DNA from: Physcia stellaris
Taxonomy: Eukaryota; Ascomycota; Lecanoromycetes; Caliciales; Physciaceae
Length of the DNA stretch: 64,000 nt
Assembly: GCA_018902385.1 (NCBI GenBank)
Contig: JABSSW010000051.1
Location: forward strand, 1-64,000
Direction of reading: 5' to 3'
Numbering within the stretch: position 1 is the stretch's first letter; the number at the start of each line of letters is the position of its first letter. The translations under genes were made by a program, and so were the position numbers. Below, one piece after another: positions 1,926-30,496 of this stretch. The notes below the pieces were generated by a model. The model made no database searches and had not been told where the DNA came from. It saw only the letters and a list, made by a program, of their open reading frames with translations.

Positions 1926-2078
1926 TGTTATGGCGTTGACATATTGACATAGCTAGCTAGATGATTAGTAGATGATTGTCTCGAAATCAGTATCTTGACA
2001 CGTGTAGTATTTAGTCAGCAATCTTTTTTAACTAGTCAATTCATTCTTTTTTACATCATACAATTCTGTATCATAACA
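1926..2078 (+). repeat. 5' LTR of Gypsy element 2
   Basis: It begins TGTTATGGCG and ends ATCATAACA, and matches 16374-16527 almost base for base. The differences are mainly G/A and C/T transitions. Confidence 0.85.
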
Positions 2079-2927
2079 TATGATAGCATTATCAGATTTT
2101 GCTTTGCATCATTGATTGCTGACAAATCGATCAGATGTTTTTAACATTTGTTTGTTAAAGCATCAAGATCAAACTCAACATCAAACGATTCGACATATTC
2201 GATCGATCAATTATCAATTCGTTCGTTTCGTTGCATTTTTTCTGTATTTGATTTCGAATTGCAATCTGATTTACTTATCGCGATATTTTCGTAAGTGACT
2301 TACTTAATTGCTTTTTACGTTTACTAGTGACACGATATCGTCGTCGTCAGCAATATTAACAGTTTGATTTACTTATCGCATCAAACATCAATTCTGCTCA
2401 AAAAGTGAATGACTATTTATCAATTGAGTGTCTTTTTGCTTTGTGAAAGCGAGTTTGTCAGCAATTTCATTGTTTGTGTGCGTATTTTCCGACTATTGAT
2501 CAGAAAATTTCGCATTTGTCTCACAATGTAACACAAACAGTGACAAAGTGAATGATTCAAAGCATTTTTTCTTTTTATTTTTTTTTTTTTTCAGTCTTTC
2601 ATTTCATTCGCAATTTTATCACTCGTTTTTTGTTGTATCTGTTGATTTCTTCGTTGCAATTCGCACGTTTGTTCGCACGTTGACATCAGTTCGTTGACTA
2701 TTATGCATTCGTTGTTTCAATGCATTTAACTATCGTACGTACAACTCGCACGCTGATTCGTACGCTGTAATTATACGTTCGTTGTCTGTTCGTACGCTCG
2801 TAGCATGTTACAGTTCGTACGCTGATTTATCACGTCTCTTTGACGTGTATTTCGTTCGTTTCTGTATCAATTGTACGTTTTATCTTAGTTCAAGCTGACA
2901 TCTTTTTCAGTAGATTCGAATATAATC

Positions 2928-2932
2928 AGTAG
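2928..2932. repeat. Target-site duplication (left) of Gypsy element 1
   Basis: AGTAG lies directly before the 5' LTR and is repeated exactly after the 3' LTR at 9637-9641. Five bp is the usual Ty3/Gypsy duplication length. Confidence 0.75.
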
Positions 2933-3154
2933 TGTTACGAGCGTGCCTGGCAGGTAGATCTGACAGATAGGTAGTTGATATGATATGTGATCGGGCTGAC
3001 GAACTATCCTAATTCTACGTTGAAACTAGCGTGATTTGAGGCTTGGCGTCGCACACTGCTTGCAATTCCAACATTTTGTATCTATTTGTTTCTGCAGACT
3101 TATTATTTTCGTCTGGCTAGTCAATATTACGTCTATTCAACACGATTCATGATA
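2933..3154 (+). repeat. 5' LTR of Gypsy element 1
   Basis: It aligns end to end with 9413-9636. It retains more C and G than the 3' copy, including CCTGG and GGTAG stretches that are TCTGA and ATAG in the 3' copy. Confidence 0.87.
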
Positions 3155-3419
3155 TTACAATAAGTTTTCAATTTCTATCGCTCGTCGTGATACGCGAGCG
3201 TTCAAAAATAAGACTTCAGATCGACTAAATCCTTCTGACGAGACAAACGACGAAAAGTTCTGTTGATCAAACAAACGATCAAAAAGTTCTTCTGACGAAA
3301 CATCTGACGAAAGTCGTGAAATAACAAGTCGAATCTTCGCACGCAATCGACGATAGAAGACGAGAACTGACACGATTAACTTTCTTTCTTTTTATCATCT
3401 TCAATTTTTCATTTTCAGC

Positions 3420-5560
3420 TATGGTTCGAAGTCATCACGAAACAATTTCTCTCGGATTTTTTATTTCGATGAAACAACGCTTTAGAACGCTACGTGTCAC
3501 GACGTGAATCGTATCTTTGCATGAAATTAACGACAACTTTTCTGACGAAAATTTCGCTGATCAATTCAAACGTCGTCGATCTGTATCAACGGTCGAATTC
3601 ATAGAAGTGAAAAATGACGAAGTCACTCATTTTTCTGAATATCGTTATTATCGATCAATTGAAATGATGAATCGATCATAAAATCGTCGACTTTTAAAGA
3701 AATTTGATCGATTACGCATCGATCGTGATAACTATCTGAACGTTCTGACTCAATATCAGAATTTGTACAATATTGTCAGCGCCGATCGTGACGAATTGAT
3801 CAATACGAATGTCGAGCTAAATGAGATACGTCGAGAGTTGAATATCTTGAAGAGCGAATACGAAAGACAACGTGATTTACTTTTGATCAAAACAAAAAAA
3901 TTACATTTTTTTGAAAAAGATCACGACGTCTTGCTGATCAAGACTCGCGACCGTACACGAGATTCTGGCGTCGGCGATGAAGAAAACGACGATGAGATCA
4001 ACGTAATTAACTTTTCTCAGAAGAACAAACGACGTTTCAAAGCACATTGATTTTTCTAAATTAAATCGATGGGTAAAATTCATTTGACGTGTTTGAAAAA
4101 CAAAAATACACGATAAAATGACGATCAACGCTGATCATTACGACACGAACATGATTGCAGTCACTATTGTGATTGACTGAACTGAAAGTGATGTCGATAA
4201 TCGCATCTGATCGGTTCGTGACATTGATATGAATCATTTCAAAATCTGACATATGATGTTGAAATTTTTGGACACTATTTACGAAAATTCTGATTTCAAA
4301 CGCAATATGCGTAATCAATTTCGAGCATTGATCATGAGTACTCAGAACTTTCAGTTTTTTATTTCATTTTTTTCGTCTTAGCAATTGACTGGCTATAACG
4401 AAATCATCAAGATCGAGAAATTGATGAACAAGATTTTCTGAAATCTGAAAAAGACGATGAGTGTATATTCGCGTGAATTCATCACGCTCGATGAGATTCG
4501 AATCGTTCTGCAGCAAATATACAATCGGCAATCGAGTTTTCGAAAAGAAAAGATCGCGACACGTCAGCAACGTTCTGAATTGTCTCAGTTCAGATCAACT
4601 TCTGTCGCTTCGATTTCGATGCTTTTTACGAAATCTATTACTTCGATTCTCTTCGTGAAGTCTGTCGTTCATTTTCATTTCAGCGCTGAAATCGAAGACT
4701 CGTGATTCGATGACAGACAAACTGATCGTCACGAACAAATGTTTCACGTACGATGAAATCGATCACGTATGAAGAGAGTGTTCGAACGCTCACAAACATC
4801 AAAAGCGTCATTGACACAAAATGCAAATGTTTTACATGAACATGATCGGCGAGTCGAGCGAATCTGACTCGGAAAATTGATAATTCACATCAAAAAACGC
4901 GATTGATGAGTGTTTAAAAATTTTTCTACTCATCGCTGACGAATTGTTTGACTTTTTTGTCAGACGATTTTTAGTCATCAATTGTACGTTGTCATTCAAC
5001 GATAATAAACATAAATTAGAAACTTTAATAGCATTGATGCTGACTGATTATGTTTTCATTGATAAAAAAATTGCGCAACTTGTATGCAACATGCTGGCGT
5101 GAATTTCGTATTTCTACTAAAATCGAAGTTCATTATCGGATTCGACGATCGTCAGACTTTTTCAATAACTCGTATGTCATTTATTTCAAGCTGACAATTG
5201 ATCTGCATTTCGAGTTGACAACTTCTTTGTTCATATCGATCTGAACAATCATTCGATAATTCTAGAAAAATCGTGAATGAACAAGCATGAAGTTATTCTG
5301 AATATGATTTACGATAAACTGATTTTCAAATCGTTCAAATGTAATCATCATGATAATATATTCATCAAAACAATGCAGACTCGACGTTTGAAAATTCCTG
5401 ATCCAAATCGTCGATGAGACGTATCTAGCTGACGTCGCGATGCTCTTTTATCGAAAACAAATAACGCGAAACATATTGCTGCAATAGAATCTCGATATAC
5501 GATTTTATTTCGTTCGCAATTTAGCTTTTCAACGTTCTATGTACAGGACGAATCAAACGT
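3420..5560 (+). pseudogene. Gag and protease region of Gypsy element 1 (decayed)
   Basis: The clearest piece is 3763-4050. It encodes a charged heptad-rich segment (RDELINTNVELNEIRRELN...) of the coiled-coil kind often found in the N-terminal Gag of fungal Gypsy elements, and ends in an acidic stretch (DEENDDE). A second open piece is 4457-4705. No intact zinc knuckle or protease DTG/DSG motif could be read, so assignment rests on position between the 5' LTR and the RT. Confidence in the exact limits is low. Confidence 0.45.
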
Positions 5561-5959
5561 ATTCGATTCAGAATGTTTCGATTGTTTTATTCACTCGAAA
5601 GTCGATCAAGATGACGAGTCGTTCGTCGTTGAATCAGATCGTTCAAAAATTGATATCGCAGCGACTACGAAAACGACATTCGTCAAAAAAAAAAATTTGA
5701 AAAGACAACGCAACAAACGTTGAAAGATCAAAAAACAACAATTCGAAATTTTTTCATTCTCGAGACTGAATTCAGACGATTCGATGAATATCGCGATGAT
5801 TGATGCGATTTTTTTTTGTTTATTCGTCGACTTCAAAGATCGAAAGCAAAAATGCAATGCTTTTCATTACGATCAATCAAATCGATTTCGCACTCAAGAC
5901 GTTGCGAACAAATTTTGAATCGTTGAAAATTGTCGTCATAATCAAAAAATTCTGAAACA

Positions 5960-8604
5960 CGAGCAAATCAAGTCGATTCTTGAACGTATAATGAAAAAAA
6001 TATCGAAATACTTCAGACATTTGTCAGAAATATTCGATTTTCAGAAGGCAATTGAATTGTCGTCGCATCGAATTTACGATCACAAAATCGAACTTCTAAG
6101 CGATAACAATACATTGTCTCGAAGTCGAATATATTTTCTGTTCGAACTCAAACTTCAGAAACTCAAAAAGTATTTGAAAAATAATCTTCAAAAAATTTCA
6201 TCGTATTCAGTCAAGCAGCATACGTCTCGTTCGTTTTATTTGCAATCAAGTCAAATGATCAATTACGTTTTGTGTGAATTATCGACGACTTAATCACATC
6301 ACGAAACGCAATCGATATTTCATTTTCTTGATCGAAAAGACTTTAGCTAGAATGCAAAATTGCAAGTATCTGATCAAGCTGAATATCATATCGATTTTCA
6401 ACAAGCTTCGAATGAATGAAAAAAATGAAAAATTCATCACATTCGTTACTTTCATGAGATCGTACAAATATCGAGTATTACTTTTCGGATTGATCAACGA
6501 ATTCGCGAATTGACAATATTACATGAACGATTTGCTGTTCAGCTTTCTGAACGATTTCTGTCAAGTCTATCTAAATGATATTCTCATTTACAACAAATTC
6601 AAAAAAAAAGACATCGTTCACGTTCGTAAAATGCTAAAGAAATTCAAAAAAGCCGAATTACAGATGAATATTGAGAAGTGCGAATTTTTCAAGAAAAAAA
6701 TGACATTCTTGAACGTCATATTATCGATGAATGATCTTCGCGTGAATTCGAAAAAATAAAAGTCATTGTCAATTGAGAACGCTTTACAAATCTGAAAAAG
6801 TGCAAATTTTCGTGAATTTCGTCAATTTCTACAGACGATTCATCCGTGACTTCTCGAAAAAGATTCGAGTTCTCACTGAATGATCAAAAAGCTCGTGGAT
6901 TTCGAATGAATTGTTGAAACCGAAAAGATCTTCAATCTCTTCAAAAAGACGATGATCGAAACTCGTCATATTACGACATTACGATCGAATCAAACAAATC
7001 ATTCTGAAAACTGATTTTTCTGATTACGTCAATGCGAAAGTATTATCTCAATACGACGACGAAAAAGTTCTGCATTTCGTTGTCTTTTATAGTCGCAACA
7101 TGATTTCAGTCGAATGCAATTACGAAATTTATGACAAAAAGTTGTTGATCATTATTCGTTGTTTAGAGCACTGACGTTCTGAGTTTGAAAACATTGAAAA
7201 ATCGATCAAAATCTTCATCGATCACAAAAATCTGAAAATTTTCATGACGTCAAAGAAACTAACTTTTCGTCAAGCTCGTTGGACAAAAACTCTCTCGAAG
7301 TTCAATATTGTCATTCAATTTCAGTTCGAGACTCAGAACGTTAAAGCAGATGTTCTGATTCGTATGTCTGACTCACGATCAAAAAACGATATTGACGAAC
7401 AGCATCAATATCGAGCAGATATTGCTTATTTCGAAACGACTCGAGATTCACGCGATGAAGACTGACGAATTTATTTATGAACGAATTTTTGCTGTCAACA
7501 GAACTGACGATGATTGCACGACTTATCGTGAAATCATCGAACAAAATTTCATTTCAATGAATGAAGTTGATTTACGAAACTGCATTGAAAAAAACGACGT
7601 CTTGTATCGAGAAAATCGACTTTGAATGTTCGTCGATGTTCTTTTACTCGTTGATTTTTTTTCAGAAAAATTCATGAATTTTTGCCTCGAGACATTCAGG
7701 TTTTAATCGCATGAAGAATCTTATACGTCGCGACTATTATTGACTCAACATGCGCAAGGCGGTTCGTCGATACGTACGTAATTGTCATGAATGTCAACGC
7801 ACGAAAATTTCCAGAAATCGCAAAAACGATTTATTTATTTTTTTGGTCATATTTTTGCAACGTTGGATCGACATATCAATGGATTTCATCATCGGGTTGT
7901 TCGACGCTCACGATCATAATGTCATATGCACGATAATTGACAGACTTAGCAAGAAACGTCATTACGTGTTCTGTATCGTCAACGACGAGAATATCGATGT
8001 TGAGATCACGATCAAAATACTCATCAATTACGTATTTCGTACACATGAACTATTTTTCTCGATAACGTTTGATCGAGACTTTCAGTTCATATCGCTCGTT
8101 TGACAGACATTCTGTCGAATTCTCGGCATCAAATGTAAGCTCTTCATCGTTTTTCATTCAGAAATCGATGAACAAATCGAAAAATCAATCAAAATATCGA
8201 AAGACAGTTGCGACAGTACTGCAATTACATGCAAAACGATTGAAACGTCTGATTGTTCATGATCGAGTTTGCAAACAACAACGCAATATTTGCAACAACA
8301 AAACTATTCTCATTTTTCATCAATAAAGGAATTTTCATTCCCGTATGAGCTTTTCACCAAATTTTACCTCGTATCTACAACGAGAAAGCGACTTCTGATC
8401 GTCAAGACAGAGAATATTATCGACACAATGCAAAATATTCTCAACTACGTACGAAATCATGCAAAGATGACTCAAAAACGTATGACAGTTCAAGTCAACA
8501 AGCGTCGAAAAATCGTAGAATACGTCGAGAAAGATTTCGTCTTTTTCGATCGACGAAACATCAAAACGATCAAATCGTCTGACAAGCTCGATGACAAAAG
8601 TTAA
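5960..8604 (+). pseudogene. Pol (RT, RNase H, integrase) of Gypsy element 1 (decayed)
   Basis: Pieces in order: RT entry around 5991-6290 (HRIYDHKIEL, matching the HRPYDHAIEL of Gypsy Pol); RT core 6274-6513 (NYRRLN, KLNIISIFNKLRM, FGLINEFA); the polymerase box at 6568-6588, read as YLNDILI, with Asn at 6574-6576 replacing the first catalytic Asp; RNase H 7010-7465 ([36 protein letters not shown]); integrase zinc-finger cysteines near 7780 (CHECQRTK); and integrase core 7860-8103 (WIDISMDFIIGL, then FDRDFQF). Many stops are TGA at conserved Trp positions. Not functional. Confidence 0.85.
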
Positions 8605-9202
8605 ATTTTTATAAAATATTACAACGTATGAACAATTCATATCGATTCGAGTTGTCTGAAATCATGCATATTTACGATGTGTTTCACTGTTGATTTTTGC
8701 GCAAAGATCTTCGTGACCCACTCGAAAATCAAATCGATGAATTTTCTGATTCTGTCATAGTCAACGAAAATTTCGAATGAAAAATGAACGATATTTTGAA
8801 ATCTCGATATCACTACAATCGCTTTCAGTATCGTGTCAATTGATCGAACTGATCGCATGATCGAACATGATATTATGTCGACAACGAAAAGTTTGATAAT
8901 GTTCGCGACGTGATGAACGATTTTCATCGCACTCATTTCACGATTGCAAATTCAAAATCGTTCAAAACGTTGACTTCAATATCTCAAAACGTCGTCAACG
9001 GATTCGATTTTTCAACGAATCGTCGTCGCTTTCGAAAAAAGATCGTCATGTTGACATTAATCGAGACTACATTCGATTAAAACCTGAAAGTCTCGAATTC
9101 AGTACACTCATCTCGATTTCATTTTCGCAACGTTTTCGCAATTTCTAATCTTCGTTATCGTCTCGATGTTACTTACAGTCAGAACTTACGTCGCATGAAG
9201 GA

Positions 9203-9412
9203 TTGAATCGTGTCAAAAACATCTTCAAAAACTGTTGTCAGATTTTATCGAGCTTTGAAGCAATAACGGAACATCTGAAAATGAAAGATGATGATCGTGA
9301 AATTTCTGAATTTTGCAAACATTCAAATCAATCAGCAAGATTCTCAACAAAATTTTTCAATCTCGAAGTAACAACGGATCGTCGAAACGACGCTCGCGAA
9401 GAAAAAAGATAG
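9203..9412 (+). pseudogene. 3' coding tail of Gypsy element 1
   Basis: An open stretch of 69 codons before the 3' LTR contains NRVKNIFKNCCQILSSFEA. The corresponding position in element 3 (29615-29690) carries a similar sequence just beyond its Pol. Elements 1 and 3 therefore share a related 3' region of unknown function. Confidence 0.4.
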
Positions 9413-9636
9413 TGTTACGAGCATGTCTGACAAATAGATCTGACAAATAGATAGTTGATATGATATGTGATCGAGCAGCGAACTATGCTCTAATTCTACG
9501 TTGAGATTAGCGTGATTTGAGACTTGACGTCGCACATTGTTTGCAATTTCAACATTCTGTATCTATTTGTTTTTGCAGACTTATTGTCTTCGTTTAGTTA
9601 ATCAATACTACGTTTATTCAAGCACGGTTCATGATA
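9413..9636 (+). repeat. 3' LTR of Gypsy element 1
   Basis: It is the partner of 2933-3154 and is followed by target duplication AGTAG (9637-9641). Compared with the 5' LTR it has lost many C/G positions at CpC and CpT (or the complementary GpG and ApG). Confidence 0.87.
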
Positions 9637-9641
9637 AGTAG
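9637..9641. repeat. Target-site duplication (right) of Gypsy element 1
   Basis: AGTAG, identical to 2928-2932. Confidence 0.75.
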
Positions 9642-9699
9642 AACGTTCAGATTGTACGACTTCAAGATTTTTGCAAACGTATCGTGATCGCTCGAAACA

Positions 9700-11462
9700 T
9701 TCGAAGCAGAAGTTACTGTTTTAAACATTGTATTCAACTCAAATAAATCAACGAACTTACGATTTCAATTTCTTCGATCTAGATTCGACTTCAAGAAATT
9801 TACTGACTGATTTTCGAATTGAGAACAGTCTCGTGTGTTTGTTAAAATCGTTCGAAATTTTTGCAACGTCACTACAACTTATCGTGATTCGAAATACTTC
9901 AAACAACTGATTAGAATTTCACGACAGCATTTTTCGTTTAGCAATTCTGTGACATTTTCGTATAGTTCAAATACATCATTTAAGTTTGAATTGTCACAAA
10001 AGTTACGAAATTCGTTTGCAAGAGTTTCACGAATATCACGTCGAAGCAAATTCATAATTAACATTGAAAACGTTTCTATTCGCTTCGATTTACGCTTTGT
10101 TTCGTCACAGACATCAAGTTATTCGTCTGTAATCAATTCATTTTTTCGACGTGTTACAAACGTCACGTTTGTTGACGAGATTATTCATCACGAATTTATT
10201 GAATCACAGTCAACACGAAATATGATCGATTTCACTGTGAAACAGCAACGAATCATTGCAATCATTGTACGAAAAGCTATTCAGATTATATCTCGTGAAC
10301 GTGATGATAACGATGATGACGTTGAATCATTTGATTCGTCTGATTTTTTCGAATCATTCGATCAGAATGACAATATTGACAGCAACACTAAATGAAATTC
10401 GACTGATTTTGATTTTTTCGATTTTTATTACGATGACAAATCGCTTGTTAATGAAACAAGCTCTATCGTTAACATTGATAAAAATACATATTTTCGAAAC
10501 GTACATTTATTCATTGTACGAGCGAAAAAGATGACTTTTACACGTGACGAACAACTAATTAAAAACAATTTGTGATTTAGTTTAAAAAATATTGCGTTGA
10601 AATGATGAACAAATGAATTGTTTGACGTCGAACGTCGAATGGCTAAAATGACTATGACTGGACAAGAAGAATTGTCTGAATGGATTAGCTTGTTGCACAA
10701 TAGATTCAAACAACCTACTAACGTTGCTATGAATAGCCTAGTGCAACAGCGTTAGCACAGCGTGAATCTCGTGAGTACGCACAGAAGATCATTGGGCCAG
10801 CTAAGAATGCTGATATGACCAGCGTACTCAATCAGCTCGACCTCATCTACAATGCCATCGACGTTGATGTACGAGCCGGCACGCTACGCTGCCTCAAAGA
10901 TAGCATTACTATCAACGAAATGCTTAGCGATATGAACGAATTCAAGCACGACTCGTGGGCTAAAGCTGCTAAGCTACGCAGCAACATCAATATTCAAAAT
11001 AGTCGTAATCAATTATCTAGACAGAATGTTCGTTTTCAGCAATTCGATCAATATATAACTAGTAATCGTCAATCGCAATCTCAGCGACAATCGTTTCAAT
11101 TTCAGTCGTTTCAACGTCAATTTTTTCAATCTCGTTATTCGAATAATGCTTATCAAAATCAGTCTTTTCAGTCTCGTCAAAGCTATCAACAAGCAGAATA
11201 TCAGATTTACAAATCAGCTGATTATCAAGTCGACTATTCAAACAATCAAGAAGATCAATACTCAAACGCTCGCACGTTATTTACGTTGTCGAATCGATTA
11301 CAGATTATCGTCGATTCAGCAAACGTCAACGCGTCAAATTCGAATCAACAGCAATTTATGTCATCACGACAGTTTTTAAATCGCTCAACAATATTCAACG
11401 AAACGACTATAATGATTATGATGAATATGCACAGCGGCGTTTTCAAACAACGTATCAAGTAG
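9700..11462 (+). pseudogene. Gag of Gypsy element 2 (decayed, with one unmutated patch)
   Basis: Open pieces at 9835-10395 and 10815-11462 carry a Ser/Arg-rich N-terminal part with an acidic run (RDDNDDDVESFDSSDFFESFD) and a Gln-rich C-terminal part (FQFQSFQRQFFQSRY), typical of Gypsy Gag. The stretch at about 10710-10985 differs sharply in composition: it is rich in CT, AG, CC and GG and reads without stops (IIGPAKNADMTSVLNQLDLI, TLRCLKDSI, DSWAKAAKL). It seems to have escaped the mutation process seen on either side. The Gag assignment follows from position between the 5' LTR and Pol and from composition; no CCHC knuckle was read. Confidence 0.6.
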
Positions 11463-11649
11463 CGTTGTTGACGAAACGAACGAGAATAATTACATCATAA
11501 ATGACATCAATGACGCTCATTGACTATTTGAATATCAAAATATTGACGATGACGTGTTCGTTTACGATGAGCAAACTGATTTGTTTGATGATTACAATCA
11601 AAACGTTGAAATCGCACAAAACGTCAATTTTTGACGTTTACTATCGAAG

Positions 11650-16373: not shown

Positions 16374-16527
16374 TGTTATGACATTGACATATTGACATAA
16401 CTAGTTAAATGACTAATAAATGATTGTTTCGAAATCATAATGTTTTGACACGTGTAATATTTAGTCAGCAATTTCTTCTAGCTAGTCAATTCATTCTTTT
16501 TACATCATACAATTCTGTATCATAACA
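16374..16527 (+). repeat. 3' LTR of Gypsy element 2
   Basis: It begins TGTTATGACA and ends CATAACA. It pairs with 1926-2078. Confidence 0.85.
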
Positions 16528-16729
16528 TATTTGATCGATAACGTCGATTTATCATTTTTTTTGTTTCGAAATTTTTGTGAATTTGAAAATAATTGCAATG
16601 ACATCATTGTTTCGATCGACAAAATTACATTCACGTGAAATTTATGCGCGTTCGTCTTTTTGCGTTTGTTGATTTCGTTTAAATAAATTTTTTTTTGTGA
16701 TTTTTCGATGTCTCGTCGTTGTAATTCTT

Positions 16730-18100: not shown

Positions 18101-18120
18101 TTGTTGAGTTATTTCAAAAA

Positions 18121-19624
18121 TTTGGTTTGTAGCATAAATTGTGTCCACTGGAACTCTCATCGGATCTATACTTTGTAATCTTATCAGATCCAAGCCTAAC
18201 CCTGACTAGAAGGAGCTAGTCCAATTTCAGCATACATTCTGGACCACCGAAGAAGATGCACATCCACCCAGGTAAGGATAATGCTCAAGCACCCTCCGCA
18301 ATCGCCGCCTTCCGTTGGGTTGGATTGAGGATCGGAGCCTTTGTCCCGGACCAGAGCAACAAAGACAAATGGAGTCTTCGATACCGAGTAAGTCTCCGTG
18401 GAAGGATGGGGAGCTTCGCTAATCGTTGCAGGACTTTGAACGTGTTCTGAAGCGCATGTGAGGCGGGCGGAAGGTGCCCAATTACATCGATGAGCGGCAG
18501 GTGAAAATCAACCGTGATCCGGTGAGTCTTGGGTACTAGTAATCCAGGAGTTCTGGCAGCTACAAATCCCTTCCCGCGACAACGACCTTCTTCTTCGGTG
18601 GACTGCATTGGGAATCCGCCAAACGTCTACCAAGATTGCGCAATGCTACTACGCAATAAGGTGTCTCATAAGAGCGGCTGTTGAAGAGAATATTTTTTGT
18701 ACCATCCAATCCACATTGAACTCTTCGGGGTACTATGGCAATAATACAATTTGATGCGCCCTTACCTCGACACGAAGATCAACAGGCAATTATCTCAACC
18801 GTAATTCGAATCCGGATCAGCTCTCGCTGACGACAGAGTCAGGGGGACATGGCGAACAGTCCGGTCTACGGTTGCAGCTCCCCAGCTGATCTTGGAAAAG
18901 AATGTCTCTTGAGATTTTAAGACACGATGATTTATATGGAAATACTTTTCAATGGCCAGCGTATGAACCCCATCGATTGGTAGCAATAGGCCTTTCGAAC
19001 CCCCATCTATACCCCATCTATACCACGCGTTTACTTTCTCCTTTCACAAACGCTCATCATCTTGGTGGAGAGCACAATCATTTGATAAGACCTGCTCGAT
19101 CCCATAGGAATCGATGTCTTCGCAGTTTTTAGAGGGCCTCTAATCATCGCCACATAAAAGGGACCAGGCTTTGGATACCTGGTTGCAAACAGTACTACGG
19201 CCTCGGAGCTGCACTTCCGCTCAACGAAAAAGTCTAGGCCTCGTTCTTTGATATTAAGATTCACTTACATTCCCTCAGTTCAGTCTTACAACTCCGAATA
19301 TTTCCCGTGGCGAACTCAAATGTGTTCTTCATTTCATTTTCCTGATAGCCAGAAGCCGATCGCTCTTCCTTAGCGCCATCAGGTTTTCCGCTTATGAGGC
19401 AGCGTATGATGGCTGATCCACGCTCAGGTATATGTTTCCCAACTGAACAGTTTGACATTGCCAAATACGCCTTAATTTGTCCGGGTCACAAAATCTTCCT
19501 CTGGGTATCACATATGTTCCAATAGTGTATCGTTGAAGGGATTCTCACTTCTTTCCTTCCAGGCATGATCTTCAAAGCTACAAAGTTCTTGATATGGGCC
19601 AACTGAGCGCAGTCTAGACGTCGC
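18121..19624. other. Intergenic, normal composition, no gene recognised
   Basis: The AT-rich stack stops here and composition becomes ordinary. Short open frames (for example 18256-18450) show no recognisable domain, and reading across likely splice sites near 18376-18437 gave nothing familiar. At 18175-18205 lies a 31-bp sequence that recurs imperfectly at 37979-38009. Confidence 0.5.
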
Positions 19625-21528
19625 TTATTTCTCGCTCTGCCCGTCCAACTCGGCGGCTCTGTCTTGCCCAGATGAATCGCTTGGTCGCTCATGAGCTTCC
19701 AGCCCTCCCGGCATGTTGCCATCAATGGAGCTACCGGCGAAGGGCTTGTTGTCTTCGCCCTCGACGCCGACAACAAGCTGCGCCTTGACGCGTGGCCCGA
19801 CGTAATAGAAACGGCCGGCCGCATACCAGTATATAATTGCGAAAAGGGCAACAGCGACTATAAATACGCACACATAGTTCATCTGAGAGAAGCCATTAAA
19901 ACTGATCATGACAAAGCTCGTCTGGCAGGAGTACTTACGTTCTCTTTAGTGACAGGTCTAACAGTCGGCTGCACGTAAATAATAGTGACGAAAGTGGTCC
20001 AGATTACAGCCCACCAGTTGATAAAAGGGCGTGCCCGCCCCAAATGGAACGGCCCAGGTTCGAATTTGCCATACAGAAGCTTGCAAATAATTGGAATGGT
20101 GTAGGACCAGTCCAAAGCGATAGCGGTGAGATTGAAAATGGCGGCAATAGCGGTATAGCTCCCCAGTGCAATCAGGTTGACAAGTATACAGCAAGTAACA
20201 AAAAGCCAGACTGCGTAGAGTGGGGTTCCGGACCAGCTGTTGATCTTGTACCAAATTCGGGAGCCGGGCAAGAGCTCATCACGTGAAAAGGCCCACACGG
20301 TACGAGAGCCTGCTTGAATGGCCACCATCGCCCCGAAGTTGAAAATAATAAAGGTCATAACGGTGAAGAAAATGCCGCCTTTACGGCCTGTGACGTCGTA
20401 GAAGATTTGCGCCACCGGCTGTGCAACAGGGTTGTTGAGCTTCTCTGCAATGTCCCCTACGCAGTACGCCAATACAATGGTGTATAACCAACCGCTGACG
20501 TAAGTGAACCCCACGGCAATTGCAATTGACCAGGCGGCCTTAATCTCTGGATTCTTCATTTCTTCAGCGATATGAGCCGTAGCGTCCGAATCCGTCATGG
20601 TCCAAGACGCAGATAGAAATCCAAAGAGCCATGACCAACCATTCGGTTTCCATCCAGAGCTATTGACAACTTCGGTCCACACGTACGAAGAACTATGCTT
20701 GTTATCACACATCACCAGGAGCGTAATGCAGCATGCAGCTAGCACTGCCACATGGAAAACGACATATGTTTTCGTTATCTTTTCAAGGATTGAAGTACGC
20801 AGACTGTTCAAGCATCCGTGGAACACTGCGATTGCGGCCATTACTCCAACAGTTTGACGGTCCGTTGGGGTGTATCCTCGAAAGTCATCGGCCATGGAGA
20901 CGGCTGCCAGGAGCAATTGAGCGCATCCATACTCCGTCGAAGCAACACCAGCGACCTGGCCGATCAGATTAAGCCATCCTACGAGCCATGAGATTTCTGG
21001 AACCCATTTTTCTGGCACCAAATATTTGCACGTAAAATATATTCCGCCTGAGGTTGGATAGGCCGACACGAGCTCGGCTACCGAGAGGGCGATACAATAA
21101 CAACCAAACCCTGAAATCAGCCAGCCCCAAACCGCTGATGACGCTCCTCCAGCTTCCAGAGGGTAAATAAAGGTAGTCGTGACGCTAGCCCAAAGACCCG
21201 ATATCGAGAGAGCAAAGGAGATGCAGGACATCCAAGTGAATTCTCGTTTGTAGACCTAAGGTCAAATCCTTGGTCAGCGTCCGGTCAAGCCCTAGAACGC
21301 TTGGCCATTTGAAATGTCAAAGAGTCAGTCCAAGCTCACCTGGACATAGCCCATCTCCGCGAGCCTTCGGTCAGCATCGCTGAGCTCACCGCCTTCGAGA
21401 ATTGCCGCGCTGGCCTCATCGATCACAGCGGTGGATTTGCGCCTTTCGGCGAGGGTCGACTTTCGGCGGGATGTGGTGCCTTTGTTCTCGACTTCGAGAC
21501 CTTGGCTTTCGGCTGCAGATGTCGCCAT
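19625..21528 (-). CDS. APC-superfamily amino acid/choline permease
   Basis: Three exons on the minus strand: 21528-21340, 21255-19939 and 19882-19625, joined in frame with GTGAGC...TTAG and GTAAGT...CTCAG introns, 587 aa. After a hydrophilic 70-residue cytosolic N-terminus come about 12 membrane segments. TM1 carries the start of the family signature (SFALSISGLWASVTTTF), and SAYPTSGGIYF, GWLNLIGQ and FSRDELLPGS are typical of the fungal GABA/choline permease group (ACT, Uga4/Hnm1-like). The C-terminus is hydrophilic. The role is plasma- or vacuolar-membrane uptake or export of an amino acid, choline or a related amine. SWN clusters include a transporter, swnT, which as I recall belongs to this family, so this gene could be it, although about 20 kb and an AT-rich block separate it from swnA. 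The symbol is withheld for that reason. Confidence 0.85.
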
Positions 21529-22890
21529 AGTGCAATTGGCCTGTTAAATATTGGGAAGATATTCCAGGATCGTTTGAAGGGCACAGAGAAAATTGAAACC
21601 CGCGACGTGTCTGGGCGGGGAGAAGAAGGTTTCCATCGGACTGCTTGCCGGCGTAAAGGCTCGAGGGCCGTCGGTACATGGTAAGGGGTTAATTGGTTTG
21701 TTTTTCCTGCGAGTTCGTTTTTCCTTCTTGTGCTCCTGCATATGGTGAGGGGTTTACACTAAGTCGGGCAGGGGAGTGTGCTGTACGTACCTCGAAGCGA
21801 TTGGGTACCGAGGAAGGACAGCTCGAAAACTGCAGGAACTGCAAATACGCGATCACAGCTACCATGCAGTCGAAGCAAGATCCCCGGTAACCTCATGTTA
21901 GCACACCAATGACGGTGGAGAACACAGAGATTACGGTCTTTTTCAATTAATGCGAAATCTGACCGTGAACGACGTTGGGATAGAGTACTGGTGCTGTACT
22001 AATCGCGGGGCTCTTACCACCAAAGATGTTGTCGGAATTTATCGGGAATGCAAGGCGACGACGGTCGATTTGAACTATCGGTGACAATTGAATCTTGTAG
22101 GGTTTATCCCATTCATGTTGTGGATATGGTGATGCTTCCGGTGCTTGTATTGTAAACCAGCCTTTGGCACGAGTAATTCTGGTTTGTTCAAGCAGAAGGA
22201 TCGTTCGTATCATTCCGCGGATAGATTTGGTGCGTGTAAGGCTTGAAATAATTCAGCTTCAGAGACAGCATCGGATTATGCCCGATCGCGCTTGCAAAAG
22301 CCTGGCTGATGGCTAGCAGTCCCTGAGGTCGTTGATGCTCGACAGCTAGCAATTGAACGTCAGATTGTAGTCACCAGTATCAATTGCGAAGGGCCTTACC
22401 TGATCTGAAGGACAATTGGAAAGGCAGGAGATTTTACAGGGCAGATATAAAATGCCTTCCAACGGACATACCGGGCTTATCCCTGGTCTGGTAGTAAGTG
22501 GTGCTAAATTTTATGATACACGGACAGATCAGCGATTACCCGACTTGGAACGGAATCAGAAGATGATGTTGTCTTCATGTCATTTTCATATCGTCTTCAT
22601 GCCGTCTTCATATGCTTTGTGCCAAACACGGGTAAGCGTGTTATCATATTGAGTGTATCTATGGTTGGCGATGCATGGGAGGCAGGGAGGCAGGATAAGC
22701 ACCACACCAGACCATGGGATATCGGGCCGAGCAGTCTGAAACAATTTAGGCTAAGGTACCTCCGTACCGATGGGAGACTACCCAGGTTGCAAGTCAGTCG
22801 ACCCCGTTTGTTTACCTCGATTGACCTGATGGATTTCATCTGATCTCGGTTAATTTCATCTGAACTCGATTGATCGACTAATGCGAGACA
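21529..22890. other. Upstream region of the permease; no gene seen
   Basis: Normal composition with scattered short open frames and no recognisable domain. It contains the permease promoter and ends where the second AT-rich block begins, near 22890. Near 22800-22880 GATTTCATCTGA/TTAATTTCATCTGA-type near-repeats occur. Confidence 0.5.
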
Positions 22891-23895
22891 CATAGAATGT
22901 ATATACATAAATAAAGCATTTAATCATTTTTTTAACATTGTACATATCATGAATGCATTCGCGAATTTCATCGACTTGAAACAAATAATAAAAAATTTTT
23001 AATATATTCGTAACATATTTTTAATTGATTTAAACTCGTAGTTGATTTCAGAATTTTCAATTGTTGATTTGAAATCGAAAAATGCTTTCGTAACATCTTT
23101 TCGAAATCAAGAAAAAGTAACAAATCATTATCAAAATGTTTACAATACATTAATAACATATTTTTTTAAATTCGACATAAAAATTTCGACTTTTAAATAA
23201 AAACGCATTGAAAACGAACGAATTTATAAAAAAAAAAAAAAAATTATGAAATAAATTAATGATTTGATTGATTAACGTATTGCAAATATATTAACAACAT
23301 GTTAGATTATTGAGAAAATTTCTATAATTTTTGGCGATAATGATTCAATGTCAATAATTGTACAAGAGATTAAATACAGCATCGAGCTTTCAGAATTTTC
23401 AAAATCGTCGAATAAAGAAACAGCATATGTCTTGAATTTGACAGATAAAAATTTAAAAGACATCAATGTTTTGAAAAATGTAAGCGAAAAAATTGACAAT
23501 CATTTATCAAAGTGTTTTTAATGTATTCAAAACTTTATTAACAAACAAAATAGTTTCAATATTGCAAATCACAAATTCGGTTTTTTCGCAATGCAATTTG
23601 TTTTTTAATGAATAATGTTCATTGTCGTAGTTTTCATTACAAATGTATCGAAAATACAATATGTTCACAATTGAATACGAAATTCAAGACATTGTCTTAT
23701 TATCAATTAACTGAAAATATTTGAAATATTTTTCACAAAGTTCGAACAACATGTTTCAAAAAACATCAAAACATAACGCAACGACGTGAAATATATTCAC
23801 ATTTGCAAGAAAAACTTGACAATATTTTGACAATATGTTGACAAAATATTCAAATGATATAATGCGATTCACAAGCGTTTTTCTCAAAAGAAAAC

Positions 23896-24216
23896 TGTAA
23901 GAAATAAAAGTTCAGAATTTTCGAAAATGCGATTCGCATTTCGTCAAGCAATTCGATTATCGAAGTTCGAATGACTTCGAAAAAATCAGTTTCAATCATT
24001 TTACAATTCGATCAACGATAAATTCAACAAACTCATATTGTCAATCGAAGTCGCTCGAATTCGTACGATTGAATAAATAGAATGTGAATAAAAAAAGCAG
24101 CTGCAGAACGTAATCTGTTTTGTAGCGATTAATAAATCAATATATTACATTTCAAACTATACATTTCTGATATCAATAATTCATTAGACTATACTATTTT
24201 TAATACGAGTTTTACA
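23896..24216 (+). repeat. 5' LTR of Gypsy element 3
   Basis: It aligns without large gaps to 30178-30496. About 22 differences were seen, nearly all CpT/ApG transitions. Confidence 0.87.
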
Positions 24217-24295
24217 TTTTAATCGCTATCATATTTCAGAATGATGTCACTCGTGTATACTTAACAGAATACAGTTTTGTTGTTTCGCATACATC

Positions 24296-25560
24296 ATGTC
24301 GAGTTCTGATAATGATTTGTTTTTTGAGTTTGTCGAGAATGCTGACGTATTTCTTTGATTGATTTATTACAAGCAACAAATCGAAAAAAATCATAAAAGA
24401 AAAATCAGATTGCAAGCTCGAAATATTGAGCGTTCGAAATCTGTAGTTTTTATTTCATTTGTTTTTATTTCATTTATTTTTGCTTTTGATTCTGTTTGAA
24501 AGTTTTTCGTCATGAAAATTATCGAAGCGACATCGAATCAATATGAAGAAAAAAATTACAAAAAGTGAAAAAGATATTGCAAACAAATGAAAAGTCAATT
24601 CACGCAAAACAACGTGAATCACATGATTCAATTTTCGAATCTAATCAAGATCGCATACGTTGATATTTATTTTAAGTCAAATAGCAATGCGAACAAGTTT
24701 TGAGACGCAAAAATCGACTCTCATTCAAACAAACAATACATCTGAAACGAATTCAAGATTTTTCTGAAAAGCGACATCGAACGAGCAATCACGTTGTAAC
24801 AAAATTTTTGAAAAAATATCGCAAGCACAAACAAGATCACAATCAATCGATTAAAAATTACAATGTCGAACGAATAAATATGTTTGTTGAATTGAAATTC
24901 GAATTCAGACTCACGAAAACAGTGAAATTCAACGATTTTCGTGACGAGTTACGTTTGAAATTTCGTTGCATGCTTTTTAAAAAAGAAGATTTTCACGAAA
25001 ACGAAATTGTTTGAACGACTCAAGCGTATGAAAAACGTTCAAATTTTGAAAAAGAATTCAAAAACTTCAAAAAACGTAAAATCTCGTTCGATACTGACAG
25101 TTTTGAAAGCGAAAACGAAAAATTCAAAATTGCGAAATTCAAAAATAAGAAAATCAAAAATATTAACAAAGTCAATTCGAATCACGAATCAATCAAATCG
25201 AAAAATATTCGAATGTATCGCTGATTCGTCAACGAATTCAAAAGATTCAGAACAAAAATAATTGTATAAATTGTGACAAATCAAATTATCAAATCGAAAT
25301 TTGCACAAACAAAAAAAACAAAATCATTTTCGTTGATCAGATTTTTGAGCAATCAAAAAATTAATCGATTTGATGATCTTCGTTCAAGTCGCTAAAAAGA
25401 AAAAATTTTCGAATTTCGATTTCGATACGTCGTTTTTCTCAAACATGAGCAAAAATCATGTTAACAAAAAAAAAAAACGACGCAAAAAGTTTAAAAAATT
25501 CGTGATTCGTAAATGCGTCAAAATCAAAATTAACATACAGAGCGAAAACAAAATTTGAAA
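24296..25560 (+). pseudogene. Gag of Gypsy element 3 (decayed)
   Basis: An ATG at 24296 opens MSSSDNDLFFEFVENADVFL, soon broken by TGA. Later open pieces at 24700-25014 and 25007-25261 are highly basic (Lys/Arg/Asn/Ser-rich), and Cys-containing text near 25265-25310 may be the remains of a zinc knuckle. The assignment is by position between the LTR and the protease/RT. Confidence 0.5.
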
Positions 25561-25574
25561 CGAATCGAAAACAA

Positions 25575-28500
25575 TATTCGATACAAAAACGAAAATTAAT
25601 TTGATAAATCATGTCTATGCGAAAAAGTTGAATTTTCGTCGTTTTGAAATTTTAAATTGTGATGCAATAACAGTTGACAATCATCGTTTGAAAACGTATG
25701 ACGTTTATTTCGTACAATTCGAAATGTCAAACGTCAAGAAAATTAGTCGTTTTTTCGAGAAATCGTTTTTGATCGTGAATTTGAATTGAAATTTAACGTT
25801 AAACATGTTTTGAATACAATTTTCGAAAATCAAAATGAATTGAGACGACGACAATATCAAAACTTGACGTTGCAAAAAAAAACATTTCATTTTCATCACA
25901 TGTCGTATCGAGAACATCGAATCAAAACAATTGATCGAAAACGTCATCGATAACGAAATCGAAACGTATTTCATGTTCGTACGAGTGTATATTGACAAGC
26001 AATTCGACATGCATAAAATACATATTTCAAAACGAATTCAAATAAAATCTGTTTTGATTGAAATGAAAGAAAAATTCGATGTCAAAATCATTTTTTCGAT
26101 ATTTTGAAAACGTATGAAAAACTCGATAACGAAAATAAAATTTACGAATTATCGAATCATGATTCAAACGATCATGCTATTGATTTAAAAAAAAACAAAA
26201 AATCGTCGCATGAATCAATTTACTTTTTATTCGAAAATGAATTTCGAATATTACGTGTTTACATCGAGAAACATTTAATTAACGATTTCATTCGATTTTC
26301 ACAATTTTTTGCAAAAACGTTCATTTTGTTCGTCAAAAAAAAAAACGATAATTTACGATTATGCGTGAATTACAAAAATCTTAATGTTTTCACGATAAAG
26401 AATAAATATTTTTTATCGTTAATCGATGAGAATTTAAATAAACTCAACAAAGTTGTCAAGTATATCAACATTGATTTGATTGTTGTTTATCATCGATTGC
26501 GTATCAAGCATGAAAACGAATGAAAAACGATTTTTCGTACTCGATATGATCATTTCGAGTATAACGTATTTTTTTTCGATTTCACTAACGTTTCGACGAC
26601 GTTTCAAGATTTCATCAATAAAATTTTAACGATTCGTCTCGATATTAACGTCATTGTATATCTGAATGATATAGTAATTTATTCGATGAACGTCGAAATT
26701 CATGTCGACGATGTCAAATGAATTTTTGATCGTTTTAAAAAAAATAAATTATACATTGCTTTTGAAAAATGCAAATGATTCGTTGACGAAATAAACTTTC
26801 TTGAATTCGTCGTTTTTTTTCAAAAAATGAAAATGCAAAACAAAAAAATCGAAACTATTCAACAGTGATCAATATTTCGCAACGTTTTCGACATCATGCA
26901 ATTTTTCGACATCGTTAATTTTTATCGACGATTCATTAAACATTTCAATAAAATTGCTGAATTTCTGATCGTTATGTTAAAAAAATCATAAAAATTTCGA
27001 AAAAATATTCGTAAACGCAAACGAAATCAAAATCGAAATCGCAACAAATCATCGAATATTCACATCTTTTTGATCAGCGAAACATTGAAAATTTTCAAAC
27101 AATTTCGCAAAACATTTATCGAAATATCAATTTTACGTCATTTCGATTTCGAGCGTGTTATTCGAGTCGAAATCGACGCATTCGACAAAATTTTGAAATC
27201 ATTTTATGTCAACAAGACGACGAAAATCATTGACATTTTGTTGCGTATTTTTCGCGCAAATTGATTTCGATCGAATGTCATTACGAAATTCATGACAAGA
27301 AATTGCTGATTATTGTGATTTCGTTCAAGCAATGAAAACATTATTTCGAAAACGCAAAAAAACAAATTTTTGTTTTTATTGATCATCGCAATTTGAGACA
27401 ATTTATGATCACAATTAGATTGTCGTCACGTCAAATTCGATGAATTCAAAAGTTGAGTCGATATAATTTCTTAATCGATTATCGTTTCGATAACAAAAAT
27501 TTTGTTGACGAATTTTCAAAACGATTTGATCACATGATGATTATTGAGAAAAACGTCGAAAACAATCGTCAGATTTTGAAACAATTGCAAAAGTCATTGA
27601 TCGCAAACTCGAAACGTTTCGAAAAAATGCGAATAAATGCGATCAAAATCATGAATGCGATGCATGTCATGAAACGATTCATGAATGCGATGCATAACAT
27701 GAAACGTCGATCGCATTTAAATAATTCAACAATCGAATCAATCAACGTTGTTTCGAAAACATTTGATTCAAAAAATTCAAAACGAAATCGAATTTCAATC
27801 AACGCTGTTTCGAAAACATTCGATTCAAAAAATTCAAAAAATTCGAAACATTCGATTGAACAAAAATCAAACGTGACATTCATAAAATGAAAAATTTTTG
27901 TGTTAAAATCAGCGATTGTATTTGAATGCGCAATGCATAAAGTTCGAATACAAATTGCTTTACGAAAGAAAACGACATATAACGACGAGTCAACATTTTC
28001 ATTGTTGAATTTCGTTCGTGATTTGATCGTTAAAAATCAATTCGTTTTTGAAATATGTCGAAAATTAATTATTTCGAAAACAGAAACAAACAATTGACAA
28101 CACAAAAATGAACTTTTGTATTACGACGATGTCGTTTACATTTTAGAAAATTTGCGTGAAAACGTTATTCGTGCACATCACGATAATTCGCTCGTTGATC
28201 ATTTCGACATCGAACGAACGTTAAAATTGATACGTCGAAAATATTATTGATCGAATCAAAATTTTATCGAAATTTTTGAAATGCGACAACAAATCAAAAA
28301 ACATTGTGAAACATGCGTCGTTTGCAAACGAAACAAAATTGCACGACACAAATCATACGACGAGTTTTTTTTCTTTTCGATTTCTGAATTTAAGTGAATT
28401 GATTTTTTCATGAATTTCGTGACAAAATTTTTTTCAAGTAAAGCATGAAATGAAACGATTTACGATTCGATTTTAGTGATTGTGAATCGTCTAACGAAAA

Positions 28501-29420
28501 TGATTCATTACATATCAATAATTAAAACGATTTTCGCAAAAAATTTGATTGAAATTTTATTTCGCGAAATCATTCGATTTCACGATTTTTTTTCGTCAAT
28601 CGTCATCGACAGAAATTTCATTTTCACGTTCAAATATAACGATGCACTGTGTTACGTCTTGAAAATCAAACGTAAATTGTCAATCGTTTTTCATTTTCAA
28701 ATTGATGAACAAATCGAGCGAATGAACAACGTCATGAAACAGTTTTTTCGTGTTTTCGTCAATTTCGAACAAAATGATTGAATAAAATTGTTGTTCATGA
28801 TCGAATTCGTTTACAACAACAACAAACATGCATTTACAGACATTTTTTCGTTCGAAATTATGTTTGAATATTCATCTCGCATGTTTTTCGAAAAACATGA
28901 AACAAGAAAATTAAATTCAAATTCGCAAAGAAACACGTTGAACATTTAGTTGAATTATTTCGAATATTGAAAAACAATTTATTCGTGACACAACAACGCA
29001 AACGATGTATAAAAACGAACGCACGAAATCAATGCCATACAACGTCGAAAATTACGTGAATTTGAACGATAAAAACATCAAAATTAAGCGAAATAAAAAA
29101 CTGAAATGAAAATTTTTTGAATTATTTCAAATTTTAAAAATTATAAAAAATCAAATTTATCGTTTAAATTTATTTAAACGTTGATTCATTCACGATGTTT
29201 TTCAAAAACGCGCATACGTCATATTTTTTTGAATTTTTTTATCAAATTGAAAATATTGAATTCGACGAAAACATGAAAATGAAAATCACGAAAAAATTTT
29301 ATGAAATCGAAATCATCAAAAACAACAAGATTTTCAAAACAAATGAAATTTCAAACAAATTTTACAGCGAATTCGATTTCTACTATCTCGTGAAATGAAA
29401 AAATTATGAAAACGCGATTT
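25575..29420 (+). pseudogene. Pol with chromodomain of Gypsy element 3 (decayed)
   Basis: Protease-like segment 25601-25789 (INHVYAKKLNFRRF). RT 26104-26810: DHAIDLKKNK, FVKKKNDNLRLCVNYKNLN, NIDLIVVYHRLRI, and the polymerase box YLNDIVIYS at 26659-26685, with Asn at 26665-26667 in place of the first catalytic Asp. RNase H 27100-27480. Integrase zinc finger near 28290-28345 (HCETCVVCKRNK). Integrase core 28400-28790. Chromodomain-like tail 29195-29450 (EFDFYYLVK, then TGA where Trp is expected, then SLHRLSSIFEKLCDNF). Stops are frequent, many at Trp or Gln positions. Clearly inactive. Confidence 0.83.
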
Positions 29421-30177
29421 GAAAGTCTGCATCGTTTGTCAAGCATTTTTGAAAAACTTTGCGACAATTTCATAACGAGAATTCGAAAAAATTTGATGTC
29501 AATAAAAAAACAAATCATCGAAAATCAAAAAGAAAATGAATTGAAATACTTATTGCATGTTAACACATTTTCGTTTTCAAAACTTTGTGTGTTATTTATT
29601 GTCTAGAATTTACGACGCATGAAAAGCTGAATTGTGTCAAAAACATTTTCAGAAATTGTTGCTCGATTTGATCGAACGATGAGTCGTTGAATAAAAAGTG
29701 TGAAATAAAATAAGAAAAAATTTCGAAAATTTGAATATCAATGCGATCGCGATTAATGAACGTCTATCGCGTTACACATTTTTTCATGATATCGATGCTG
29801 ATATTCGAAATAAAAAAATGAAAAAATGAAAAAATGTTCGAATTCAAAATTTTTTGTCAACAAGTCAATTGTCAATCATCATATCGAAAATTGTGAATGA
29901 TACGAAATCAAACACTCGATCATGAAAGCAACAAACAATTGATTCATCAAATTATGTTTTTTCTGAATCATTCAAAAAAATGTTTTTCAAATTTTTAACG
30001 CAGACTGACTATTGAATTCGAACAAAAATATTTCGAAATGCGAAAATCACGATCATAGTGATTTTTCAAATCAATGCAAAATCAAAACAAGCAAAACACG
30101 TCAAAGCAAACAAAATACGTCAAAGTTTTTGTTAACATGTTGATTTCAAGAAATTTCGATGCTTAAAAAAAAACGTA

Positions 30178-30496
30178 TGTAAAAAATAAAAATTCAAAAT
30201 TTTCGAAAATGCGATTCGCATTTCGTCAAACAATTCGATTATCGAAATTCGAATGATTTCGAAAAAATCAATCTCAATCATTTTACAATTCGATCAACGA
30301 TAAACTCAACAAATTTATATTGTCAATCGAAGTCGCCCGAATTCGTACGATTGAATAAATAAAATGTGAATAAAAAACAACTGCAGAACGTAATCTGTTC
30401 TGTAGCGATTAATAAATCAATATATTACATCTCAAATTATACATTTCTGATATCAATAATTCATTAGATTATACTATTTCTAGTACGAATCTTACA
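30178..30496 (+). repeat. 3' LTR of Gypsy element 3
   Basis: It pairs with 23896-24216, ends TTACA at 30496 and is followed by array sequence. Confidence 0.87.

What the first reader, a model, noticed from the sequence alone, without database searches (positions are those of the whole stretch)
1926..30496. RIP-like mutation with CpT/CpC rather than CpA preference
Hand alignment of three LTR pairs (1926-2078 with 16374-16527; 2933-3154 with 9413-9636; 23896-24216 with 30178-30496) gives roughly 60 transitions. Nearly all are C/T followed by T or C, or the complementary G/A preceded by A or G; only a handful lie at CpA or CpG. In element 3 almost every difference is CpT, as if CpC were already used up. 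Accordingly the blocks are full of CG, CA and TG but nearly lack CC and GG. Classical RIP in Neurospora acts mainly on CpA, and some fungi favour CpG. A CpY-directed process sparing CpG would be a different specificity of the DNA methyltransferase-like machinery, or a different deaminase.
Basis: partly seen in the sequence, partly recalled or inferred. Interest (0 to 1): 0.8.

Follow-up and report, generated by a model that had tools for sequence, protein, structure and literature searches.

The report
Repeat mutation with reversed letter preference
In the lichen fungus Physcia stellaris, repeated DNA is worn down by C-to-T changes that hit a C mainly when the next letter is C or T and leave CA and CG nearly untouched, close to the reverse of the rule in the fungi where this genome defence was worked out, so the usual tests for it see nothing.

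Summary
It holds across the genome: 28 LTR pairs give CpC 50/81, CpT 370/641, CpA 42/814, CpG 5/503. One unmutated LTR copy gives the direction: C>T at CpC 514/598, CpT 312/655, CpA 17/679, CpG 0/399, with little effect of the base before. Three further repeat families agree, the smallest and oldest more weakly. The genome is Physcia stellaris. It carries RID and DIM-2 homologues and a second, DmtA-clade RID relative. Best reading: repeat-induced point mutation (RIP) with a changed target rule, CpC > CpT >> CpA > CpG. Neurospora's order, as quoted in a paper I read in passages, is CpA > CpT > CpG > CpC. Which enzyme does it is not shown. Standard RIP indices flag 0 of 55 AT-rich 1-kb windows. 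In ten searches of an open-licence library I met no report of such a rule.

The parts
1912..2081 (+). LTR-type repeat, first copy of element 1 (Ty3/gypsy-like)
   Evidence: self-alignment; 30 places in the genome; CpY changes
16360..16530 (+). LTR-type repeat, second copy of element 1
   Evidence: self-alignment 85%
2917..3154 (+). LTR of element 2, nested inside element 1, first copy
   Evidence: self-alignment 84%; 41 matches in the genome, a lower bound; polarised by an unmutated LTR
9397..9636 (+). LTR of element 2, second copy
4840..6037 (+). interior piece of element 2 compared with an unmutated copy: CpC 154/177, CpT 71/136, CpA 9/152, CpG 4/158 changed C>T
6932..8432 (+). interior piece of element 2: CpC 190/224, CpT 86/180, CpA 6/201, CpG 5/207 changed; the unmutated counterpart encodes RNase H then integrase, the Ty3/gypsy order
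   Evidence: Pfam on the counterpart
14696..16078 (+). interior of element 1: frames with Integrase_H2C2 and an SH3_Tf2-1 match (the latter below its cut-off)
23883..24216 (+). LTR of element 3, first copy
   Evidence: self-alignment 91%; 40 scored matches in the genome, a lower bound
30162..30496 (+). LTR of element 3, second copy
16700..17500 (.). piece of a further dispersed repeat, family F4, with the same CpY signature
   Evidence: 40 matches; counts
1..18000 (.). AT-rich block, CC odds 0.10, CT 0.52, CG 2.48, CA 1.20
22500..35500 (.). AT-rich block, CC odds 0.11, CT 0.40, CG 2.70, CA 1.30
18500..22000 (.). unaffected island between the blocks, holding an amino-acid permease gene (19906-21255, - strand); CC odds 0.99
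37000..64000 (.). gene region used as comparison, CC 0.96, CT 1.02, CG 0.90

Best explanation
The AT-rich blocks are retrotransposons and other repeats that went through a RIP-like process: repeated DNA is recognised and its cytosines become thymines, on both strands, in bursts. Chemistry and targeting look like RIP, but the target rule differs: a C is hit when the next base is a pyrimidine, CpC faster than CpT, CpA at a few percent of the CpC rate or less, CpG at about background. The most likely mutator is a RID-family methyltransferase-like enzyme whose reading of the 3' neighbour has shifted from purine to pyrimidine: the RID orthologue (contig C5) or the DmtA-clade paralogue (C6). Shown here: C>T excess on both strands, concentration in dispersed repeats, the +1-base rule, the large excess over other changes, and open candidate genes. 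Inferred: which enzyme acts, that it acts in the sexual cycle, and that the repeats are recognised as repeats.
For: 28 LTR pairs: CpC 50/81, CpT 370/641, CpA 42/814, CpG 5/503, 219 C-side and 248 G-side differences. Polarised by an unmutated LTR: 514/598, 312/655, 17/679, 0/399; 843 of 862 substitutions are C>T or G>A. Interior pieces: 344/401, 157/316, 15/353, 9/365. Family F5: 573/586, 555/628, 47/763, 8/728; F4: 216/220, 721/827, 97/1002, 51/928. Little effect of -1 and +2 bases. 826 of 1253 CpY sites but 35 of 3265 other sites changed, about 100-fold per site; two LTRs have 48/63 and 55/63 CpY hits and 0/164 other changes. One LTR pair of equal age carries 11 against 42 hits (p 2.2e-5), and the first 30 of 63 CpY sites of the 11-hit LTR are unhit. 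Gene stretches and the island at 18.5-22 kb are normal. RID-clade and DmtA-clade genes, a DIM-2 homologue and a Pre-SET protein are present.
Against: No enzyme is tied to the pattern; the RID catalytic part departs from the majority of 27 relatives at only 5 conserved positions. The within-element asymmetry is significant in 1 of 10 mutated pairs. F6 shows weaker contrast (CpC 87/93, CpT 403/568, CpA 104/594, CpG 126/560), and all-pairs counts in LTR1 give CpG 128/454; both have many transversions, as old copies do. No HP1 chromo-shadow domain was found, but that search rang in no control genome. Sexual timing and length or identity thresholds were not tested.
Confidence: 0.75

Rival explanations
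1. Slow decay: a methyltransferase such as DIM-2 methylates repeats at CpY and the 5-methylcytosines deaminate spontaneously over time, with no mutating burst.
For: A DIM-2 homologue is present. Nine of 10 mutated LTR pairs have similar hit numbers in both LTRs. Copies with intermediate damage exist (GC 0.27-0.47 in LTR2).
Against: CpY changes exceed all other changes about 100-fold per site. The LTRs of one element, equal in age, carry 11 and 42 hits. CpG, the usual site of methylation-driven decay (recalled), is 0/399.
Confidence: 0.12
2. A cytidine deaminase unrelated to methyltransferases, acting on single-stranded repeat DNA or cDNA, with a 3'-pyrimidine preference.
For: Nothing in the sequence excludes an unknown enzyme; no gene has been linked to the pattern.
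Against: Deaminases of the APOBEC type are known mainly for 5'-neighbour preference (recalled); here the 5' base hardly matters (CpC 0.78-0.91, CpT 0.43-0.54). Both strands are hit, and F4-F6 are not LTRs. APOBEC_N gave no hit, but the search rang in no control genome and is uninformative.
Confidence: 0.09
3. A sequencing or assembly artefact, such as context-dependent nanopore miscalls.
For: The published assembly is a nanopore and Illumina hybrid (PMC7513301, passages).
Against: The changes are nearly complete in old copies (CpC 573/586 in F5), copy-specific, seen in all six families, and reflected in the dinucleotide make-up of AT-rich DNA outside the window (CC 0.19, CT 0.39, CG 2.57, CA 1.29); an unmutated copy in the same assembly has ordinary composition.
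Confidence: 0.02

Closest known systems
Classical RID-dependent RIP (Neurospora crassa; Trichoderma reesei)
   Same: C>T on both strands of repeated DNA, AT-rich relics, RID and DIM-2 homologues in the genome.
   Different: Order of targets: N. crassa CpA>CpT>CpG>CpC, T. reesei CpA~CpG, then CpT, CpC last (the sign between CpG and CpT is lost in the held text; PMC5496416, passages). Here CpC>CpT>>CpA>CpG.
CpT-biased RIP (Magnaporthe, Botrytis, Sclerotinia, Anisogramma, some families of Colletotrichum truncatum)
   Same: CpT as a major target (PMC4352252; PMC10998396; PMC6180176; PMC7882544 names CpT as dominant in alignment-based tests of its RIP-capable controls; passages only).
   Different: There CpT goes with a CpA signature in the species, and no passage names CpC as a main target. 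Here CpC leads and CpA is spared.
CpG-biased RIP-like mutation in basidiomycetes (Microbotryum, Rhizoctonia)
   Same: RIP-like C>T with another dinucleotide rule (passages).
   Different: CpG is the target there; here CpG is the most protected context (0/399).
RIP in the lichen fungus Cladonia rangiformis
   Same: AT-rich transposon compartments, RID and DIM-2 homologues (PMC12542154, passages).
   Different: Mutated DNA peaks near 16% GC there; here the largest AT-rich class of 1-kb windows is 25-30% GC (24 windows, 14 of them from this window). That paper's main text has no 'CpA', 'CpT' or 'dinucleotide'.
RIP with weaker CpA preference in Monacrosporium haptotylum
   Same: The authors infer a different dinucleotide preference because CpA is not depleted (PMC3828140, passages).
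   Different: Its repeats show high TpA, the product of CpA change; here TpA is low (odds 0.4-0.6).

Membership tests
RIP (repeat-induced point mutation) as a process | C>T transitions far above all other changes, on both strands | tested here: met
   843 of 862 substitutions; C-side 219 and G-side 248 of 467 classed pair differences
RIP (repeat-induced point mutation) as a process | Confined to repeated DNA | tested here: met
   all six families tested have 30 or more genome matches; gene regions have normal dinucleotides. Whether single-copy AT-rich DNA is also hit was not tested
RIP (repeat-induced point mutation) as a process | Mutation in bursts, regional within a copy | tested here: inconclusive
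   about 100-fold excess; asymmetry in 1 of 10 mutated LTR pairs; one LTR with its first 30 of 63 sites unhit
RIP (repeat-induced point mutation) as a process | Acts in the sexual cycle before meiosis | not testable with these tools
   needs crosses or ascospore lines
RIP (repeat-induced point mutation) as a process | Length and identity threshold of the repeats | not tested
   no series of short duplications was examined
Classical RIP | CpA is the preferred target | tested here: not met
   CpA 17/679 against CpC 514/598; standard indices flag 0 of 55 AT-rich windows
RID (RIP defective) protein | Methyltransferase domain of the RID type, grouping with other ascomycete RIDs | tested here: met
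   PF00145 at 142 bits; groups with Heterodermia RID 100/99 inside the Lecanoromycete RID clade (the set held no N. crassa RID). The clade is called RID from motif and annotation, in part recalled
RID (RIP defective) protein | Needed for the mutations | not testable with these tools
   needs gene deletion
DmtA-type RID relative (C6) | Groups with Eurotiomycete proteins annotated DmtA | tested here: met
   9-row set with support 96/95 that also holds Cirrosporium; the order inside it is partly unresolved
DIM-2 | Similarity to DIM-2 over the catalytic and upstream parts | tested here: met
   DIM2 structures 9bap/9baq are the best solved relatives, E about 5e-188, residues 329-1014 (titles); DUF7893, PF00145, BAH below its cut-off
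APOBEC-type deaminase action | Dependence on the 5' neighbour | tested here: not met
   rates by 5' base CpC 0.78-0.91, CpT 0.43-0.54

The most novel reading that the evidence does not exclude
Physcia stellaris runs RIP with a mutator whose reading of the +1 base has switched from purine to pyrimidine (CpC first, CpG excluded), perhaps because the task passed from RID to the DmtA-clade paralogue found here and in Heterodermia: a natural specificity swap that would reveal which part of RID-type enzymes reads the target.
Probability: 0.35. Interest if true: 0.85.

Novelty: new variant of a known kind. Interest (0 to 1): 0.75.

Why it matters
It shows that the target rule of RIP can be close to inverted, which makes the question of what sets RIP specificity open to test by exchanging RID-family genes between fungi. 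It means that surveys by the usual indices can call a heavily mutated genome RIP-free: 0 of 55 AT-rich windows pass here. And a CpY rule damages genes differently: in two interior pieces all 10 new stops are TGG to TGA; if every site of a context were hit, CpA would make 44 new stops, CpG 25 and CpY 12, while CpY would change 379 of 898 residues against 216 and 178. That fits the open stretches of up to 241 codons left in the AT-rich blocks.

Tried and rejected
Chance in three LTR pairs: rejected by permutation and by 25 further pairs. Saturation of CpA, a possible reason why CpT looks dominant in old repeats: rejected, because CpA and CpG sites are plentiful and mostly unchanged and an unmutated copy gives the direction. 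A hidden longer motif: -1 and +2 bases have little effect; the lower rate at CCC (63/98 in LTR2, 73/97 in the interior) is what one expects if the second C changes first. Led nowhere: APOBEC_N and HP1 chromo-shadow searches, which rang in no control genome; Pfam on most mutated frames; the RID model (mean pLDDT 64.7), whose best PDB matches are MET1, DNMT1, ZMET2, DIM2 and HaeIII/HhaI but which named no specificity residue. A list of 5 unusual RID residues is a lead only.

One of the 28 pairs is identical. Singletons L045-L052, L091 and L092 entered only the all-pairs counts. L060 was left out of the polarised count as identical to the reference. Reference copies were chosen as the least mutated, which biases direction but not the choice among CpN; the F4 reference is itself partly mutated (CC odds 0.37). 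The second interior piece has 2 stops in its best reference frame. F6 has 5 copies. Window element 2 and the copy on C95 look like one duplicated stretch, so they are not independent. The 17 ten-kb stretches were picked by me at round coordinates on 6 contigs that already held a repeat hit, not at random.

Full report
What was claimed. A reader without tools aligned three LTR pairs by hand and saw transitions almost only where C is followed by T or C.

Check. The three pairs exist. Of the 65 with the same neighbour in both copies, 59 are CpY (CpT 48/78, CpC 11/11) and 6 are not (CpA 4/88, CpG 2/62); 0 of 10,000 permutations reach that. In 15 two-kb steps of the AT-rich blocks the CC odds ratio is 0.00-0.37 (at most 0.16 in 14), CT/AG 0.17-0.75, CG 2.1-3.4; the gene region and the island at 18.5-22 kb are normal.

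Genome. The window lies in a genome of 43,974,083 bases in 147 contigs. Its RID protein is identical, over the 735 residues searched, to a protein of Physcia stellaris on a contig of the same length, 1,184,035 bases. Taxonomy: Lecanoromycetes, Caliciales, Physciaceae. The published assembly is 46.57 Mb in 184 scaffolds (PMC7513301, passages); I do not know why the held one is smaller.

Across the genome. Twenty-five further LTR pairs were fetched, 28 in all: CpC 50/81, CpT 370/641, CpA 42/814, CpG 5/503, with 219 C-side and 248 G-side differences. All-versus-all counts within each family (22 copies each) agree; the exception is LTR1, where CpG is 128/454. In one-kb windows at GC 0.25-0.30 the odds are CC 0.03, AG 0.26, CG 3.14, CA 1.30 (24 windows, 14 of them from this window); windows at GC 0.45-0.55 are near 1. 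AT-rich windows outside this window (24) give CC 0.19, CT 0.39, CG 2.57, CA 1.29.

Direction and rule. One LTR pair is identical and unmutated (GC 0.515). Against it, 20 other LTRs show C>T at CpC 514/598, CpT 312/655, CpA 17/679, CpG 0/399; T>C is 8 of 2187; 843 of 862 substitutions are C>T or G>A. Two interior pieces of element 2, against pieces of the same unmutated copy, give 344/401, 157/316, 15/353, 9/365. Family F5 gives 573/586, 555/628, 47/763, 8/728 and F4, whose reference is partly mutated, 216/220, 721/827, 97/1002, 51/928. F6, 5 old copies compared pairwise, gives 87/93, 403/568, 104/594, 126/560 with 251 transversions. F4, F5 and F6 have no close match to the three LTRs, although F5 copies on C58 and C81 lie about 80 bases from an LTR3 copy, so F5 may belong to a related element. 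The base before the C matters little (CpC 0.78-0.91, CpT 0.43-0.54), and so does the +2 base, apart from a lower rate at CCC.

Burst or clock. Relative to the unmutated LTR, 826 of 1253 CpY sites but 35 of 3265 other sites have changed, about 100-fold per site; two copies have 48/63 and 55/63 CpY hits with 0/164 other changes. The two LTRs of one element carry 11 and 42 hits (p 2.2e-5); the other 9 mutated pairs do not differ significantly. In the 11-hit LTR the first 30 of 63 sites are unhit. This favours episodes over slow decay, though the asymmetry rests on one clear case. A strand difference in hit rate (p < 0.05) is seen in 1 of 20 LTR2 copies, 4 of 7 F5 copies and 2 of 9 F4 copies.

Effect on genes. 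In the two interior pieces all 10 nonsense changes are TGG to TGA; hitting every site would give 44 new stops for CpA, 25 for CpG and 12 for CpY. Open stretches of 110-241 codons remain in the AT-rich blocks.

Why it is easily overlooked. [quoted passage not shown] 0 of 55 pass the thresholds 0.89/1.03 printed in PMC2621366 or the stricter ones that I recalled. The genome paper contains neither 'RIP' as a word nor 'repeat-induced'.

Candidate enzymes. A six-frame search finds three genes with PF00145. C5 is a RID, grouped with Heterodermia RID in a Lecanoromycete clade. C6 encodes a 513-residue protein that groups with a Heterodermia protein and two unnamed ones (100/100), and further out with Cirrosporium and Eurotiomycete DmtA proteins (96/95). 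C3 is a DIM-2 homologue. A Pre-SET protein is present. RID departs from 27 relatives at 5 well-kept catalytic positions only, and its best sequence matches to solved methyltransferases end by residue 844, before most of the stretch that would hold a recognition domain, so no specificity residue can be named.

Literature. Ten searches of an open-licence library; most subscription papers are not in it, and I did not see the 2011 survey by Clutterbuck that others cite. Thirteen papers were opened, all by passages only. N. crassa prefers CpA>CpT>CpG>CpC and T. reesei CpA~CpG with CpC last (PMC5496416). CpT goes with CpA in Magnaporthe, Botrytis and Sclerotinia (PMC4352252) and Anisogramma (PMC10998396); it is the bias of some families in Colletotrichum truncatum, where the authors found no RID (PMC6180176); it is called dominant in alignment-based tests in PMC7882544; short rDNA repeats of Stagonospora show CpT without CpA, which its authors doubt is RIP (PMC2621366). 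Monacrosporium haptotylum was inferred to prefer CpA less (PMC3828140). Basidiomycetes favour CpG. No passage has CpC as the main target with CpA spared.

Verdict. A real RIP-like process, seen across the genome, with a changed target rule; the enzyme is inferred, not shown.

Noticed in passing
window 51688-59307, + strand: One open frame of 2540 codons with AMP-binding, carrier, ketosynthase, acyltransferase, ketoreductase, carrier and reductase-like (Male sterility) domains: a hybrid NRPS-PKS-like synthase.
   Followed up: no
window 1912-9636 and G000 C95 22251-29970, also C60 255370-256600: The nested arrangement of LTR1 and LTR2 recurs on C95 at 96% and on C60 at 95 and 88%, as if a stretch had been duplicated after insertion; the LTR2 copies in the window and on C95 share nearly all CpY changes.
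   Followed up: partly
window 33846-34104: Short tandem-like direct repeats, 72-78% identical.
   Followed up: no
families F4 and F5 (window 16700-17500; L024 3000-3800): CpY sites are very unevenly spread between the strands (about 95 against 21, and 125 against 49), and in several copies the richer strand is also hit at a higher rate.
   Followed up: partly
L013 2404-4062 (C6): The second RID-type gene came up with no protein named Physcia stellaris among the 120 best hits listed, although RID did; it may be missing from the public gene models.
   Followed up: no
L069 and L070, L053 and L054, L059 and L060 (LTR2 copies): LTR2 copies range from unmutated (GC 0.515) to GC 0.27, so insertions of different ages or exposure coexist.
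   Followed up: partly
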